Assembly (NCBI GenBank): GCA_021831785.1
Contig: JAKBMB010000024.1
Span: 62,001-126,000 of the forward strand
From: Deltaproteobacteria bacterium
Lineage (GTDB): Bacteria; Desulfobacterota; Binatia; Binatales; Binataceae
DNA length: 64,000 nt
Reading direction: 5' to 3'
Position 1 is the stretch's first letter. Every line of letters begins with the position of its first letter. The notes below the pieces were generated by a model. That model saw only the letters and a program-made list of their open reading frames with translations. It made no database searches and had not been told where the DNA came from. Both the position numbers and the translations under genes were made by a program. Below, piece after piece: positions 15,263 through 45,705 of this stretch.

Positions 15263-15937
15263 TCAGGCCGGTTCCAGATACTTCTCCCACATGTCGATAT
15301 ACACGACTTCGTTGCCCTCGGCCTGCTCACCCCAGAGATCCTTGGCGTTAAAGCGCACGCTATAGACCGGCTGCGGTTGCTCTCCCTTGCCGATGGCGTT
15401 GGTGTCGGGCGTGACAAACGTCCCGCGCACGCGCTCGATAACGCCCGTTTTGCCCCGCACGTAGCGCGGCAAGCGAGTGTGCGTCGGCGGGTTGATGTTG
15501 CGCGCGCGCACCCGGTCGCCGGCCGCGAAATGCGGCGCAAGCGGCTCGCGCATATAGTCGTCGCCTTTGTGGGCTATTTCGATCAAACGCTCGGCTAGAG
15601 CCGGGTCCCGCCTCTTCGGCACTACCGCGGAGCCGCTCTTCTTTAACCCGCGCAGCTTGGCCTCAAGCTCGGGCCGTTTGATGAGCCCCTTGTCAATCAA
15701 ATTCTTCTGCACCGTCTCAAGCCAATGTTCGTAGTAGCTCGATTCCAGGTAGTGAACCGGGTCCATCTGTTCAATCCCGAAGCGAAATTCGTCGACGTTG
15801 TACATCCCCTGGGCCATCGTCGCGACCATGATACCGAAGACTTTTCTCTCCCACGGGCGATGAAAAACGGGCTCGTCTCGCTCGGCCTGGACCGAGCCGA
15901 ATCCGTGCATACCACCTAGGTCATGGACACCGTTCAT
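15263..15937 (-). CDS. nthB: Nitrile hydratase subunit beta
   Basis: 224 residues. The start is set at the ATG at 15937 because [16 protein letters not shown] is the conserved N-terminus of the family. The longer upstream frame has no family match. The C-terminal SH3-like half has [16 protein letters not shown] and [15 protein letters not shown], which contact the alpha subunit. It is first in the operon, the order usual for cobalt-type enzymes. Confidence 0.92.
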
Positions 15938-16327
15938 TTTGCGCACCCCCCGCACCGCCTGTAGAGCTGCCGTTAACGGCTTGAATGAAACTTGAGTATC
16001 ACAAACGCAGCCCACGCGCAAAACCCTCGAGTGGGCGATTGTCTCAAGTTGGTGGCTAAAAATATCCGGCTTTCTAAGGCACGCGCGACCCGCACCTCCA
16101 TTGCGGATCATATTCGGAGGACTCAACATTTCAGCCGGACCAATTTCCGGGGTCCAGGTCAGTTGATCAAGCATGTTAAACCTCATACGTTACCTTCCAA
16201 TGTTACTCAAACCTTAGCCGGTGGTTGACCTGAAAGCTCAAGGGTTCCGCGAGGACCGGGCGACGACGCAAGCTGACTGTTTGAGGATTCTGGCGGTTGC
16301 GCTCCATCCGGCGCCAAAAGGGAGCCT
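15938..16327. other. Divergent intergenic region between nitrile hydratase and RecQ-like genes
   Basis: 390 bases between two outward-reading genes. It must hold both promoters. I see no gene, no strong inverted repeat and no confident promoter boxes. Confidence 0.4.
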
Positions 16328-18442
16328 ATGAGCGGCCGAGCGGCGATAGAACGGGACCGCGCTAGAGAATTCCTACGACGCGCTGTCGACGACTCCGGGG
16401 CGGATTTCCGTGATGGTCAGTGGGAAGCTATTGACGCCATCGTTAACCATCGCAAGAAGCTCCTCATCGTCGAACGCACGGGCTGGGGCAAGAGTGCGGT
16501 CTATTTCATCGCGACTCGCATTCTGCGTGACCAGGGCCGTGGGCCAACGCTAATTGTTTCGCCACTGCTCGCGCTGATGCGCAATCAGATTGAGGCGGCT
16601 GAGCGCTTGGGCATTGACGCTCGGACGATCAATTCCACAAATCGCGAGGAGTGGTCAGGTTTGGCGCGAGCGGTCCGGAAAGGGAAGGTAGACGCGTTGC
16701 TGATCTCGCCCGAACGATTGGCAAACGACAACTTCGTGCAGGAGGTGTTATTGCCCATTGCTGATCATATCGGCCTTCTCGTGGTTGATGAGGCGCACTG
16801 CATTTCGGATTGGGGTCATGACTTCCGGCCGGATTATCGACGCCTGGTCAGCGTCCTGAAGAATATGCCGGCGAACATGCCGGTATTGGGCACCACCGCG
16901 ACCGCAAACAATCGAGTAACGGATGACATAAAATCGCAACTGGGCGATATCGAGATTCAGCGGGGACCACTCGGGCGCGAAACGCTCGCGCTGCAAACGA
17001 TTCGGCTACCGGACCAAGCGGCGCGACTCGCATGGTTGGCGGAACACGTTCCACAGATGCCAGGAACGGGGATCATCTATACGTTGACAAAGCGCGACGC
17101 AGAGCAGGTGTCGGGCTGGCTTAACAAAAATGAGATAACCGCCCGCGCGTACTATAGCGATGTGCGAGCCGAAGGCTTCGAAAATGCCGATGATTATCGG
17201 CAGCACTTGGAAGCGTTGCTGCTTAAGAATGAGATCAAGGCGCTAGTCGCGACCACGGCGTTGGGCATGGGCTACGACAAACCGGATCTCGGCTTTGTCA
17301 TCCATTATCAGGCGCCGGGCTCGATCATTGGTTACTACCAGCAAGTAGGGCGCGCTGGTCGGGCTATCGACTACGCGTTGGCCGTGCTGCTGTCCGGTCG
17401 TGAAGACGATGAAATTCACGGCTATTTCCGTGCCGGCGCTTTTCCCGATGACCATCACGTTAGTGCGATTCTGAGCGCTCTCGCAAACAGCGAAGGCCTC
17501 ACCACCCGGCAACTTGCACAGATTATCAATCTGCGCAGTGGCCAGATCGATCAAGCTTTGAAATTCTTGTCGGTAGAAAGTCCCGCGCCCGTATTCAAAG
17601 ACGGCCCGCGTTGGAACAGGACCGCTATGGAGTATCAGATGGACCACGATCACATCGAGCGCCTAACCCATCAGCGCGAACGCGAGTGGCAAGAAGTGCA
17701 AGACTACATCGACAGCCGAGAGTGCTTGATGGTGTCTCTGGCCAAGGCATTGGACGATGAGCAAGCAGAGCCTTGCGGCAAATGCGCGGTGTGCCTGGGG
17801 CGCGCGGTGGTGCCGGAAGGTTTTGCACATCGACTAGGAGTGGATGCAGCACGCTATCTGCGGCATTCCGAACTGCCTCTGGAATGCAAGAAGCAGGCGC
17901 CCGCTGAGGCGTTCCCGGAGTATGGGTTCAAGAGTAATCTCCCGCAGGCCCTCCGCGCTGAGACAGGTAGGGTATTATCACGCTGGGGAGACGCGGGCTG
18001 GGGTCACGTCGTGGCGGACGACAAACGTGCCCATAGGTTCCGCGACGAGTTGGTAGACGCAATGGCCGAGATGATTTGTGAGCGCTGGAACCCGCAACCA
18101 ACTCCTACGTGGGTGACATGCGTCCCCTCGAGAAATCACCCTGAGCTGGTGCCCAATTTCGCACACCGCTTAGCGGCGCGGTTGCAGCTTCCTTTCGTTC
18201 TGGCTGTGACAAAGGTGCGCGACAACGTGCAACAAAAACTACAGCGGAACCGGTATCACCAATGTCATAACTTGGACGGCGTATTTGTGATTGCCGAAAG
18301 TGTACCAAACGGCTCGGTGCTGTTAGTAGACGACATCGTGGATTCGGCCTGGACAATGACGGTAGTAGCCGCTTTGCTACGACGGCAAGGAAGCGGTCCC
18401 GTGTGGCCCGTCGCGCTTGCTAGTACGAGCACCGGTGATTGA
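16328..18442 (+). CDS. RecQ-family helicase fused to a ComF-like phosphoribosyltransferase domain
   Basis: 704 residues. The helicase core has TGWGKSAV (Walker A, about 51-58), VVDEAHCISDWGHDFRPDY (DEAH box 154-157 plus the RecQ aromatic-rich loop), TTATAN and QQVGRAGRA (motif VI, about 338-346). A RecQ-type zinc cluster is present as Cys466, Cys483, Cys486 and Cys489. After residue about 500 there is a ComF-like part: CVPSRNHPELVPNFAHRLA (about 598-616), a QQKLQRNRYHQ-NLDGVF segment, and the PRPP-binding loop VLLVDDIVDSAWT at 664-676. A helicase-PRTase fusion is unusual. The DprA-like gene starts one base after its stop. Base use is visibly less GC-rich than in neighbours, hinting at transfer. 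The likely role is handling of single-stranded or foreign DNA. Confidence 0.85.
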   Translation: MSGRAAIERDRAREFLRRAVDDSGADFRDGQWEAIDAIVNHRKKLLIVERTGWGKSAVYFIATRILRDQGRGPTLIVSPLLALMRNQIEAAERLGIDARTINSTNREEWSGLARAVRKGKVDALLISPERLANDNFVQEVLLPIADHIGLLVVDEAHCISDWGHDFRPDYRRLVSVLKNMPANMPVLGTTATANNRVTDDIKSQLGDIEIQRGPLGRETLALQTIRLPDQAARLAWLAEHVPQMPGTGIIYTLTKRDAEQVSGWLNKNEITARAYYSDVRAEGFENADDYRQHLEALLLKNEIKALVATTALGMGYDKPDLGFVIHYQAPGSIIGYYQQVGRAGRAIDYALAVLLSGREDDEIHGYFRAGAFPDDHHVSAILSALANSEGLTTRQLAQIINLRSGQIDQALKFLSVESPAPVFKDGPRWNRTAMEYQMDHDHIERLTHQREREWQEVQDYIDSRECLMVSLAKALDDEQAEPCGKCAVCLGRAVVPEGFAHRLGVDAARYLRHSELPLECKKQAPAEAFPEYGFKSNLPQALRAETGRVLSRWGDAGWGHVVADDKRAHRFRDELVDAMAEMICERWNPQPTPTWVTCVPSRNHPELVPNFAHRLAARLQLPFVLAVTKVRDNVQQKLQRNRYHQCHNLDGVFVIAESVPNGSVLLVDDIVDSAWTMTVVAALLRRQGSGPVWPVALASTSTGD

Positions 18443-18443
18443 G

Positions 18444-19793
18444 ATGAATGTCACGCCGCAAGCGCAGGCGGTGTTGCTGCTGACCGCGCATTTTTCCAAG
18501 GCTGCGGGAGGGGGTACGCGACCGCTCTCGCCAAGCGAGTGGGGCCGCTTCGCGCAGTGGCTCAAAGATCGACGTATTGGGCCTGAAGCTTTACTCAGCG
18601 AAGACCCTGGTCGTGTACTGGCCGGCTGGGAAGATAAGTCGGTGACTGTTGACAGGATTCGATATCTGGTGGAGAGGGCTGGTGCCTTGGGATTAGCGCT
18701 GGAGAAGTGGAACCGGGCCGGCCTGTGGGTGCTGACGCGTTCTGACGCCGACTATCCCAGCCGACTTAAGCGGCGACTCCGGACCGACTCACCTCCGATA
18801 TTGTTTGGTTGCGGAGATCGCAAACTGCTCCGTGGGCAAGGCGTTGCGGTGGTTGGCTCGCGCCATGCCACAGAAAACGACCTCGCATTTGCCATTCGTC
18901 TGGGCGGCATCGCTGCGGCGCAGGGGCTCTCCCTCGTGTCCGGGGGCGCCCGCGGAATCGATGAGGCGGCCATGACGGGGGCGCTGGATTGCGAGGGAAC
19001 GGTAATAGGTGTTCTGGCTGAAGGGTTACTGCGGGCCGCAATATCAACCAAATATCGCAAAGGCTTGATGGCTAAGAATCTGGTGCTGATCTCTCCTTTC
19101 AATCCGGATGCGGGCTTTGATGTTGGCAACGCAATGGCGCGCAATAAGTATATCTATTGCCTTGCCGATGCAGCCATCGTGGTGTCGGCGAACAGAGAAA
19201 AGGGGGGTACTTGGAACGGAGCAATCGAGAACATGAATCAGCGATGGGTGCCTCTTTGGGTTAGACCGAATGGTCAGAGCGCAGGTAACGCCAGCCTCGT
19301 CGCACGCGGTGCTCGCTGGCTGCCGGAAGGCAACTTGGAGCTGAAACTTCTTCTAACGCCAGACAACGGTGTGCAATCATCTCAGCCTACAGGCGCTCTT
19401 TTTGACGAGCAACAAGCGTCCTCCTCCGACTTAAGTCGCGGTCCAAGTCTAACTTCCGCAGCGCAGCGCGTATCTGAGGAAGCTCCAGATAACCTTCCAC
19501 GGGAAGGCACACCGGAACGAAACTCCGAGGAACCGGTTGGCAGTCCTTCAGTGGAGACAGTGGAGACGATGAGTTTCTACGGTCTATTTCTGAGTCGCTT
19601 GCAGGGACAGACGGCGCGAACTCCTGCGACGGTGCAGGATCTTCTAGCGCATATGGATATCAGCAAAAGGCAGCTTGAAGTGTGGCTGAAGCGGGCGATC
19701 AACGAGGGACATGTTAAACGGCTACAGAAGCCTGTTAGGTATGAATGGCGAAGGCAGGAACCAAGACAGGGCTCGATGTTCGAGAGCAATTAG
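18444..19793 (+). CDS. DprA/Smf-like DNA-processing protein
   Basis: 449 residues from the ATG at 18444. A GTG at 18435 or an earlier start at 18417 inside the helicase gene is also possible. The Rossmann-like DprA core shows VAVVGSRHATENDLAFA (about 134-150), SGGARGIDEAAM (about 166-177) and GTWNGAIENM. An acidic, Ser/Pro-rich linker follows (about 335-385), then a winged-helix-like end (HMDISKRQLEVWLKRA, LQKPVRYEW). DprA binds ssDNA and loads RecA during transformation. No com genes are nearby, and tight coupling to the RecQ-PRTase suggests a dedicated two-gene module. It ends before the hairpin at 19837. Confidence 0.85.
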   Translation: MNVTPQAQAVLLLTAHFSKAAGGGTRPLSPSEWGRFAQWLKDRRIGPEALLSEDPGRVLAGWEDKSVTVDRIRYLVERAGALGLALEKWNRAGLWVLTRSDADYPSRLKRRLRTDSPPILFGCGDRKLLRGQGVAVVGSRHATENDLAFAIRLGGIAAAQGLSLVSGGARGIDEAAMTGALDCEGTVIGVLAEGLLRAAISTKYRKGLMAKNLVLISPFNPDAGFDVGNAMARNKYIYCLADAAIVVSANREKGGTWNGAIENMNQRWVPLWVRPNGQSAGNASLVARGARWLPEGNLELKLLLTPDNGVQSSQPTGALFDEQQASSSDLSRGPSLTSAAQRVSEEAPDNLPREGTPERNSEEPVGSPSVETVETMSFYGLFLSRLQGQTARTPATVQDLLAHMDISKRQLEVWLKRAINEGHVKRLQKPVRYEWRRQEPRQGSMFESN

Positions 19794-19836
19794 CGTTGCA
19801 ACTATTCGCAAAATACGATCAAGCTTAGTTGGTTTC

Positions 19837-19867
19837 GCATGACCTGCACCCGGGAAACAGGTCATGC
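19837..19867. terminator. Probable bidirectional terminator hairpin
   Basis: Perfect 10-bp arms GCATGACCTG (19837-19846) and CAGGTCATGC (19858-19867) lie in the short gap between the convergent DprA-like and amidinotransferase-like genes. No clear T-run is present, so strength is uncertain. Confidence 0.6.
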
Positions 19868-19895
19868 CCCCGGGCCGGCCATCCGCCAGCGACGC

Positions 19896-20909
19896 TCAGA
19901 ACGGGTACGAGCGGTAGCTGTGCTGCGCGCGGAAGACCTGAGCCGCGGGGCTGAGAGGTTGCTCGTCAACCGGTCCAAGGTCGAGGATCATGCACTTGAC
20001 TGAACCGCCGCCCTTAGCCATGAATTCGCTCACATCCACCGCGACCGGCTCGACGCCGCATCCCCTGATTCGCTCGAGGAGGCTGATGCTAAGGCCCTGC
20101 GGCACGAACAAAAAGAGCTTTCCTTCGCGCTCGACCTGGAAGGCGTTGGCCGCGTAGCGCGCGGCGTCCTGCTCCGAGAGCGCGATTAGGTTCTCGCCGA
20201 AAGCCTCCTTGAGACGTTCACGCGAAGCCGGGCTCAAGGCCTCCAGATAGGCAAGCAAAAAGCGCCGGCGCGGGCCGAACGAACACAGCGCGGTATCGCC
20301 GTGATAATGCGTTTCCAGCACCAGCTCGAGTGCCAGAATCGGGCGCTCCCGCGCGATCGCGGACAGCTCCTCCAACGCGCCGCGCTCCGAGCGAAACCCG
20401 TAGACTCTATGCCACGGCGGGAAGCCTAAGCGCGGCACGAAGCGTTGGGCTTCCATTCGCCCATAAGTGAAAAGCATGTAATCGCCCGCTGGGAAGAAAT
20501 CCGCTTCTCCCTCAAAGCGCGCCTTGACCTCGCTGGTTTCGTATCCCAGCCCGCCAACAAACCAACGGTAAACCTCTCGCTCCGCGGCGCGGGTCGGCAG
20601 AAGATGTGAAAGATAAAAGCGCTTGACGGAATCGGGCGCTGTCCCGGATGCGCCGGCCGCTCGATTCGAAAGCGGACAAAGAAAGCCGGCGTTCGCGGGA
20701 TAGACCAATCCGCTAAGCCTCGGATGCGCGTCGATCACGACCACTTCGGCGCCGTACTCAAGGAGCGCGCGCGCCATCTCGTGCCATTGCCGGCGGGCCA
20801 ATTCGGGATCGACGCGCTTTTTCATTCCGAAACGGTCGCGGGTGTGCGGATTCGCCCCGCCGCGCACGGAGAAGTAGCGCGGATCGCCCATTGCGACCAG
20901 CCTGCTCAT
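19896..20909 (-). CDS. Amidinotransferase/dimethylargininase-family (guanidino-group-modifying) protein
   Basis: 337 residues from the ATG at 20909. ANPHTRDRFGMKKRVDPELARRQWHEM, read in short pieces (ANPHTR, RRQW), matches the N-terminus of the GME superfamily. Family positions seen are PANAGF (about 71-76), the acidic FEGEADFFPAGD (132-143), His203-Gly-Asp205 in THYHGDTALCSFG, and the catalytic Cys306 in GGGSVKCMILDL. The superfamily includes amidinotransferases, arginine deiminase and dimethylarginine hydrolase. The exact substrate is not assignable. It has no operon partner. Confidence 0.75.
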   Translation of the reverse strand: MSRLVAMGDPRYFSVRGGANPHTRDRFGMKKRVDPELARRQWHEMARALLEYGAEVVVIDAHPRLSGLVYPANAGFLCPLSNRAAGASGTAPDSVKRFYLSHLLPTRAAEREVYRWFVGGLGYETSEVKARFEGEADFFPAGDYMLFTYGRMEAQRFVPRLGFPPWHRVYGFRSERGALEELSAIARERPILALELVLETHYHGDTALCSFGPRRRFLLAYLEALSPASRERLKEAFGENLIALSEQDAARYAANAFQVEREGKLFLFVPQGLSISLLERIRGCGVEPVAVDVSEFMAKGGGSVKCMILDLGPVDEQPLSPAAQVFRAQHSYRSYPF

Positions 20910-45630: not shown

Positions 45631-45705
45631 AGGCACGTAGCTCAGCGGGAGAGCACTTCCTTGACACGGAAGGGGTCGGCGGTTCAATCCCGCCCGTGCC
45701 TACCA
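45631..45705 (+). tRNA. tRNA-Val (anticodon GAC)
   Basis: The cloverleaf folds fully: acceptor AGGCACG with CGTGCCT, D stem GCTC/GAGC, anticodon stem CTTCC/GGAAG around TTGACAC, T stem GGCGG/CCGCC with loop TTCAATC, then A and an encoded CCA. The anticodon GAC reads Val GUC/GUU. Confidence 0.95.

What the first reader, a model, noticed from the sequence alone, without database searches (positions are those of the whole stretch)
16328..19793. Two-gene RecQ-ComF-like PRTase plus DprA-like module
The sequence shows a complete RecQ helicase (DEAH box, zinc cysteines) whose C-terminus is a ComF-type phosphoribosyltransferase with an intact PRPP loop (VLLVDDIVDSAWT). One base after its stop begins a DprA/Smf-like gene with a winged-helix end. 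RecQ, ComF and DprA all handle single-stranded DNA. In competence they are separate genes among com genes, and none of those is present here. Fusion plus tight coupling, and base use unlike the neighbours, suggests a mobile dedicated module, perhaps sensing or processing incoming DNA as a defence system with the PRTase making or consuming a nucleotide signal. Similar helicase-PRTase-DprA sets may have been predicted computationally elsewhere, which I cannot check here.
Basis: partly seen in the sequence, partly recalled or inferred. Interest (0 to 1): 0.88.

Follow-up and report, generated by a model that had tools for sequence, protein, structure and literature searches.

The report
PsyrTA (RqlHI) toxin-antitoxin defence operon
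The two genes are an intact-looking copy of a known bacterial toxin-antitoxin pair, a DNA helicase fused to a phosphoribosyltransferase toxin plus a DprA-like antitoxin, of a kind reported to protect bacteria from phages; here it sits as an acquired insertion between ordinary housekeeping genes.

Summary
In detail: 16328-18442 encodes a 704-aa RecQ-type helicase with a C-terminal ComF-like phosphoribosyltransferase (PRTase), and one base later 18444-19793 encodes a 449-aa DprA-like protein. The pair is not new. PADLOC models PsyrT and PsyrA match over nearly their full length (998 and 506 bits). It is the PsyrTA toxin-antitoxin/anti-phage system, the architecture of RqlH-RqlI of pathogenic E. 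coli (PMC4670107). There the PRTase domain is needed for genotoxicity, the DprA-like partner binds and counters it, and mutating the DIVD loop (same four residues here) removes most of the effect. The pairing recurs in 40 of 42 testable relatives, in 4 of 51 loci and on an E. coli plasmid beside type I restriction genes. In the one other genome held for the genus the flanking genes lie 148 bp apart without it. The genome's own DprA, ComF-like and ComEC genes lie elsewhere. The PRTase model resembles ComF and the PRPP-bound toxin ShosT. The mechanism here is inferred from published relatives; chemistry and trigger remain open. Novelty: already known; low interest apart from a family-wide tryptophan in the PRPP loop.

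The parts
15941..19883 (.). Inserted cassette: DNA present here and absent from the same-genus genome G001, where about 139 bases lie in its place between the same two flanking genes
   Evidence: homology ends at 15940 and resumes at 19884 or 19915; no shared direct or inverted repeat of 9 bases or more between 15900-16330 and 19780-19960
16328..18442 (+). psyrT (rqlH-like): RecQ-type helicase fused to a PRTase, 704 aa; toxin
   Evidence: PADLOC PsyrT 998.4 bits, model 5-688 of 689
16475..16495 (+). helicase motif I, RTGWGKS (K55, equivalent to K49 of an E. coli plasmid copy)
16787..16798 (+). helicase motif II, DEAH (D154, equivalent to D148 of an E. coli plasmid copy)
17723..17794 (+). zinc-type cysteines C466, C483, C486, C489
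   Evidence: invariant in 44 of 44 aligned full-length proteins
17945..18439 (+). PRTase domain as modelled (residues 540-704), ComF/ShosT-like fold
   Evidence: AlphaFold2 pLDDT 93.0; ComF 7p0h Z 14.7, ShosT-PRPP 8zvc Z 11.9
18317..18355 (+). PRPP-type loop VLLVDDIVDSAWT (D668, D669, S673, W675, T676 invariant)
   Evidence: 44 of 44
18444..19793 (+). psyrA (rqlI-like): DprA-like protein, 449 aa; antitoxin
   Evidence: PADLOC PsyrA 506.5 bits, model 1-397 of 398
18708..19319 (+). DprA-type domain of psyrA (GSR and SGGARGID motifs)
   Evidence: Pfam PF02481 132.5 bits; G138, R140, G167, A169, G171, D173 invariant in 27 of 27 rows of A2, at least 93% in 42 rows

Best explanation
This is a PsyrTA (= RqlHI) toxin-antitoxin/anti-phage operon acquired as a solitary cassette. 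PsyrT is a RecQ-type helicase carrying a ComF-like PRTase; PsyrA is a DprA-like antitoxin, probably translated from the same message. Most likely working: PsyrA binds PsyrT and keeps the PRTase off. Phage infection or DNA stress, perhaps sensed through ssDNA bound by the helicase and PsyrA, frees or activates the PRTase, which damages the cell's nucleotide or DNA metabolism and stops phage growth at the cell's expense. Shown here: identity, intact motifs, conserved pairing, insertion relative to a congener, company with other defence genes in relatives. Shown by others in an E. coli relative: PRTase-dependent toxicity, need for the DIVD loop, binding and neutralisation by the partner. Inferred: the trigger, the chemistry, and that this copy works the same way.
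For: Best matches to PsyrT (998 bits) and PsyrA (506 bits), far above the next families DpdF (288) and ShosA (89). Published E. coli RqlH-RqlI has the same order and domains; PRTase deletion or loop mutation removes growth inhibition and SOS induction, and RqlI binds RqlH (PMC4670107: abstract, passages, sections). The four residues DIVD mutated there are the same here (669-672). 40 of 42 full-length relatives with at least 900 nt downstream have a PsyrA homologue after PsyrT; the two lacking it are actinobacteria, matching the published Gram-positive pattern. T and A identities to the window pair co-vary over 44 loci (Spearman 0.68). Empty site in the same genus; a full-length PsyrT match in 1 of 41 family genomes, its own. 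Type I R-M genes surround it on an E. coli conjugative plasmid and in 4 of 51 loci. The PRTase model matches ComF and PRPP-bound ShosT.
Against: No experiment on this copy. In strain NILS69 an overexpressed PsyrTA gave no detectable protection; three phages even plated better, which the authors put down to its growth defect (PMC12409345, passages). In the E. [quoted passage not shown] No other defence gene was seen beside the window copy: of 10 window ORFs scanned, only an SMC-like and an ABC-ATPase-like protein resembled PADLOC models. The neighbour survey in relatives had no control set. One genome without the cassette could also be a loss.
Confidence: 0.86

Rival explanations
1. A DNA-repair or recombination operon: the helicase and DprA-like protein process ssDNA and the PRTase is an accessory, with toxicity only an artefact of imbalance.
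For: Helicase motifs and zinc-type cysteines are conserved; with PsyrT as query no ordinary RecQ was found elsewhere in this genome; PMC4670107 proposes a cooperative, undefined beneficial DNA function; actinobacteria carry RqlH without RqlI.
Against: Patchy presence (1 of 41 family genomes), insertion relative to a congener, company of restriction genes in relatives.
Confidence: 0.1
2. A competence or DNA-uptake module.
For: ComF-like PRTase fold and DprA-like partner; the genome has ComEC, a ComF-like gene and a DprA elsewhere.
Against: The housekeeping DprA is a separate gene, 32% identical over 262 aa; no competence family among the 25 families shown for 76 neighbour ORFs of relatives (the lists are capped); the same-genus genome lacks the pair.
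Confidence: 0.02
3. A detached part of the Dpd (deazaguanine DNA modification) system, the helicase being DpdF.
For: PADLOC DpdF models match at up to 288 bits, one covering the PRTase end.
Against: PsyrT scores 998 bits; NCBIfam DpdF 137.7 bits against a cut-off of 550.
Confidence: 0.02

Closest known systems
PsyrTA toxin-antitoxin/anti-phage system (PADLOC; psyrTA as a toxin-antitoxin pair goes back to Sberro et al. 2013, seen here only as cited)
   Same: Same two genes, same order, near full-length family matches
   Different: No difference found; this copy stands among housekeeping genes
RqlH-RqlI of extraintestinal pathogenic E. coli (PMC4670107) and RqlH of Mycobacterium smegmatis (as cited there)
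   Same: RecQ-like helicase with C-terminal PRTase followed by a DprA-homology protein; same DIVD residues
   Different: M. smegmatis and nearly all Gram-positives lack the partner. The F11 sequences themselves were not compared; an E. coli plasmid copy is 59.6% and 45.8% identical
ShosTA (PRTase toxin ShosT, DprA-like antitoxin ShosA)
   Same: PRTase toxin plus DprA-like antitoxin; the PRTase model aligns with ShosT-PRPP-Mg 8zvc, Z 11.9, rmsd 3.6, 157 aligned; P0002 finds ShosA 9vzo at E 5e-4
   Different: The ShosT model has 237 positions and the solved chain 424 residues, too short for this helicase plus PRTase (inference); sequence similarity is weak (E 2.3e-4 on the PRTase domain)
DprA + PRTase system of a P2-like phage hotspot (PMC9122126, passages read)
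   Same: DprA with a PRTase; protects against T7 and lambda
   Different: The passage names no helicase

Membership tests
PsyrTA / RqlHI | RecQ-type helicase fused to a C-terminal PRTase, PsyrT family | tested here: met
   PADLOC PsyrT 998.4 bits over model 5-688 of 689; Pfam DEAD, Helicase_C, Pribosyltran
PsyrTA / RqlHI | DprA-like partner directly downstream on the same strand, PsyrA family | tested here: met
   1-base gap; PADLOC PsyrA 506.5 bits over model 1-397 of 398
PsyrTA / RqlHI | Intact PRPP-type loop with the DIVD residues needed for RqlH toxicity | tested here: met
   DIVD at 669-672; D668, D669, S673, W675, T676 invariant in 44 of 44
PsyrTA / RqlHI | Toxicity of PsyrT alone, neutralised by PsyrA | not testable with these tools
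   needs expression; shown for the E. coli relative in PMC4670107
PsyrTA / RqlHI | Protection against phage | not testable with these tools
   PMC10855318 lists PsyrTA as an abortive-infection system (passages); in strain NILS69 none was detected (PMC12409345, passages)
ShosTA | ShosT toxin model | tested here: inconclusive
   ShosT is not among the 25 of 28 families shown for the whole protein; the PRTase domain alone reaches ShosT at E 2.3e-4, against PsyrT at 1.9e-65
Dpd system (DpdF) | NCBIfam DpdF curated cut-off | tested here: not met
   137.7 bits against 550
Housekeeping RecQ | NCBIfam recQ equivalog cut-off | tested here: not met
   TIGR01389 262.9 bits against 640.2; the broader RecQ-family model TIGR00614 is met, 237.3 against 219.8
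Housekeeping DprA | NCBIfam dprA equivalog cut-off | tested here: not met
   TIGR00732 92.4 bits against 191.15; a separate DprA gene exists on contig C14

The most novel reading that the evidence does not exclude
The PsyrT PRTase does not act on the free nucleotide pool, as its relative ShosT is reported to, but transfers phosphoribose onto bases of single-stranded DNA that the attached helicase exposes; the family-wide tryptophan in the PRPP loop (DDxxDSxWT, where the PRPP synthetases aligned have Gly) would mark this changed acceptor or donor. PsyrA would then reverse or shield the lesion. The idea of a DNA target was already put forward for RqlH (PMC4670107).
Probability: 0.15. Interest if true: 0.65.

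Novelty: already known. Interest (0 to 1): 0.14.

Why it matters
It takes a candidate 'new' system off the list: the module has names, published genetics and detection models. The remaining open point is general to the family and testable: what the helicase-borne PRTase modifies, and whether the invariant loop tryptophan separates it from ShosT-type toxins. The empty site in a congener gives a natural with/without pair in one genus.

Tried and rejected
Competence module: rejected on neighbours of relatives and on the separate housekeeping genes. DpdF: rejected on scores; the other dpd genes were not searched for. Mobile-element ends: no shared repeat of 9 bases or more between 15900-16330 and 19780-19960; the only tRNA found in the window is far off at 45631, and Rfam finds nothing else at its gathering scores; promoter-like sites 1 found against 1.4 expected, terminator-like 6 against 3.5 (sd 1.9). 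Phage carriage: 27 of 50,697 phage records matched PsyrT, 0 over at least 80% of it; plasmids: 277 of 72,556 records matched, 11 over at least 80%. Whole-protein fold search gave RecQ-family helicases in the 50 rows shown, so the PRTase was modelled alone; a family missing from the VIA list is not excluded (note). The recalled PRTase pattern fits the window but only 16 of 44 family members, because the residue before the tryptophan varies.

Rows dropped: the structure alignments A1 and A4 used 38 of the 43 full-length loci plus the window (L019, L022, L025, L036, L040 left out). The neighbour scan used one ORF per side from 38 of 39 loci of 15 kb or more (L046 left out; ORFs over 1200 aa left out; for L031 the second upstream ORF was used), without a control set. 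Of 51 loci, 8 did not give a full-length PsyrT by the script's rule and were left out of the pairing count, as was L007 for lack of downstream DNA. The PsyrA alignment A2 (27 rows) was not modelled.

Literature: ten searches. Sberro et al. 2013, Ordonez et al. 2012 and Pu et al. 2025 are not held; what is said of them is second-hand from papers citing them. Millman et al. 2022 was seen only as a citation. Of PMC4670107 the abstract, passages and sections 11, 15 and part 1 of 2 of section 16 were read; of PMC9122126, PMC5512222, PMC8790059, PMC12278908, PMC12409345, PMC10855318 and PMC12593503 only passages.
Full report
What is there. The window is bases 62001-126000 of contig C9 of genome G000. 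At 16328-18442 (+) lies a 704-aa open frame, and one base after its TGA, at ATG 18444, a 449-aa frame ending at 19793. Pfam reads the first as DEAD + Helicase_C + phosphoribosyltransferase, with a RecQ zinc domain under its cut-off, and the second as DNA_processg_A.

What it is. PADLOC names the first protein PsyrT (998.4 bits, model positions 5-688 of 689) and the second PsyrA (506.5 bits, 1-397 of 398), far ahead of the next families (DpdF 288 bits; ShosA 89 bits). NCBIfam's equivalogs for RecQ, DprA and DpdF are below their cut-offs, while the general RecQ-family model is met. The same architecture was analysed experimentally as RqlH-RqlI in pathogenic E. coli (PMC4670107; abstract, passages, sections 11 and 15 and part 1 of section 16 read): RqlH alone is genotoxic; deletion of its PRTase or mutation of the loop DIVD removes growth inhibition and SOS induction (a modest effect on viable counts stays for the loop mutants); the PRTase domain alone is not sufficient; the helicase changes K49A and D148A give fewer viable cells and more SOS induction; and RqlI binds RqlH and counters it. 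PMC5512222 (passages) had also noted the helicase-PRTase protein coupled with DprA, and PMC9122126 (passages) describes a DprA+PRTase phage-defence system and names shosTA, 'syrTA' and rqlHI as toxin-antitoxin systems with DprA-homologous antitoxins.

Active sites. In an alignment of the window protein with 43 full-length relatives, the DEAH box, the four zinc-type cysteines and loop residues D668, D669, S673, W675 and T676 are invariant in 44 of 44; Walker-A K55 and D672 are at least 93% conserved. K55 and D154 correspond to K49 and D148 of an E. coli plasmid copy, the same numbers as the residues mutated in RqlH. The model of the whole protein is good (pLDDT 88.7) and the 50 Foldseek matches shown are RecQ-family helicases. 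The PRTase domain alone (pLDDT 93.0) aligns best with H. pylori ComF 7p0h (Z 14.7, rmsd 3.0, 153 aligned), then with ShosT in complex with PRPP-Mg 8zvc (Z 11.9, rmsd 3.6, 157 aligned), which is tied with several adenine PRTases (Z 11.3-11.7). Foldseek's own ranking puts PurF, PRPP synthetase and adenine PRTase first. In the five profile alignments shown, all PRPP synthetases, DDxxD is shared but Gly stands where PsyrT has the invariant tryptophan. Pocket geometry was not measured.

Conservation of the pair. A scan of genome contigs (one genome for each of 84,980 species) with the window protein returned 51 loci (its peptide seeds favour close relatives). Of 43 with a full-length PsyrT, 42 have at least 900 nt downstream and 40 of these carry a PsyrA homologue. 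In 39 it lies between 4 bases of overlap and 157 nt away; in L038 the best-scoring copy is 1181 nt away but a second copy lies directly after PsyrT. The two without are actinobacteria, L041 and L045. This agrees with the published count: of Gram-negatives in that survey 87.9% have both genes, of Gram-positives 99.6% only RqlH. Identities of the two proteins to the window pair co-vary (Spearman 0.68, 44 loci).

Gain by transfer. In the only other genome held for the genus, G001, the genes that flank the pair here (a dimethylarginine-hydrolase-like gene and nitrile hydratase beta) lie at C85:158-1171 and 1320-2009, 148 bp apart. Window homology stops at 15940 and resumes at 19884 (19915), so some 3.9 kb here replace about 139 bp there. 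No terminal repeats were found. A full-length PsyrT match occurs in 1 of 41 family genomes, its own. With the PADLOC model 3 of 57 genomes, its own included, pass E 1e-100, the other two (G019, G059) only over part of the model. GC3 of the two genes (0.64, 0.587) is below that of 14 other window ORFs (0.693-0.843). One congener without the cassette could in principle be a loss; the scarcity in the family argues for gain.

Company. In the window the neighbours are housekeeping (nitrile hydratase, dimethylarginine-hydrolase-like, acyl-CoA dehydrogenase and others), and among 10 window ORFs scanned only an SMC-like and an ABC-ATPase-like protein resemble PADLOC models. In relatives, 76 neighbouring ORFs included 5 that match type I restriction models, 3 PglX models and 3 type I specificity models (25 of 154 families shown; Pfam agrees with 5 HSDR_N and 3 Methylase_S, 25 of 89 shown); there was no control set. 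In an E. coli conjugative plasmid the pair sits between the S and R subunit genes of a type I system, and 4 of 51 loci (L008, L030, L031, L032) show HsdR at 60% identity or more together with HsdM and HsdS matches; a fifth, L037, matches HsdR only weakly. 11 of 72,556 plasmid records hold a match over at least 80% of PsyrT.

Mechanism. Shown in a relative by others: PRTase-dependent toxicity and neutralisation by a bound DprA-like partner. A review states that ShosT acts as phosphoribosyltransferase and pyrophosphatase and disturbs purine metabolism, T7 Gp0.7 being a trigger (PMC12593503 passage, citing Pu et al. 2025, not read). PMC10855318 lists PsyrTA as a system that protects by abortive infection (passages). 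Inferred for this copy: PsyrA holds PsyrT; infection-linked DNA or ssDNA changes release it; the PRTase then harms nucleotide or DNA metabolism. Against a simple story: in strain NILS69 an overexpressed PsyrTA gave no detectable protection and slowed growth (PMC12409345, passages), and deleting rqlHI had no detected fitness effect in E. coli.

Verdict. The finding is real, correctly located and functionally interesting, but it is a known system, PsyrTA/RqlHI. What stays open, namely substrate, trigger and the role of the loop tryptophan, concerns the whole family rather than this window.

Noticed in passing
window 15263-16186 (-): The nitrile hydratase beta ORF has an upstream extension without a counterpart in the G001 match, which begins at residue 77; the real start is probably near 15958.
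   Followed up: partly
L038:12087-14082: A PsyrT relative in a Bacteroidetes MAG is followed by two PsyrA-like copies in tandem.
   Followed up: no
L085:2694-12773; L008, L030, L031, L032: PsyrTA amid type I restriction genes, between the S and R genes on an E. coli conjugative plasmid, and beside such genes in four genomes.
   Followed up: partly
L044, L046, L047: Loci with a shortened PsyrT reading frame (330, 282 and 253 aa); L044 and L047 keep a PsyrA frame of 342 and 423 aa, L046 has no PsyrA match.
   Followed up: no
G000 whole genome: With PsyrT as query no ordinary RecQ helicase was found besides PsyrT; the next match is a 423-aa helicase-like frame at E 3.3e-9.
   Followed up: partly
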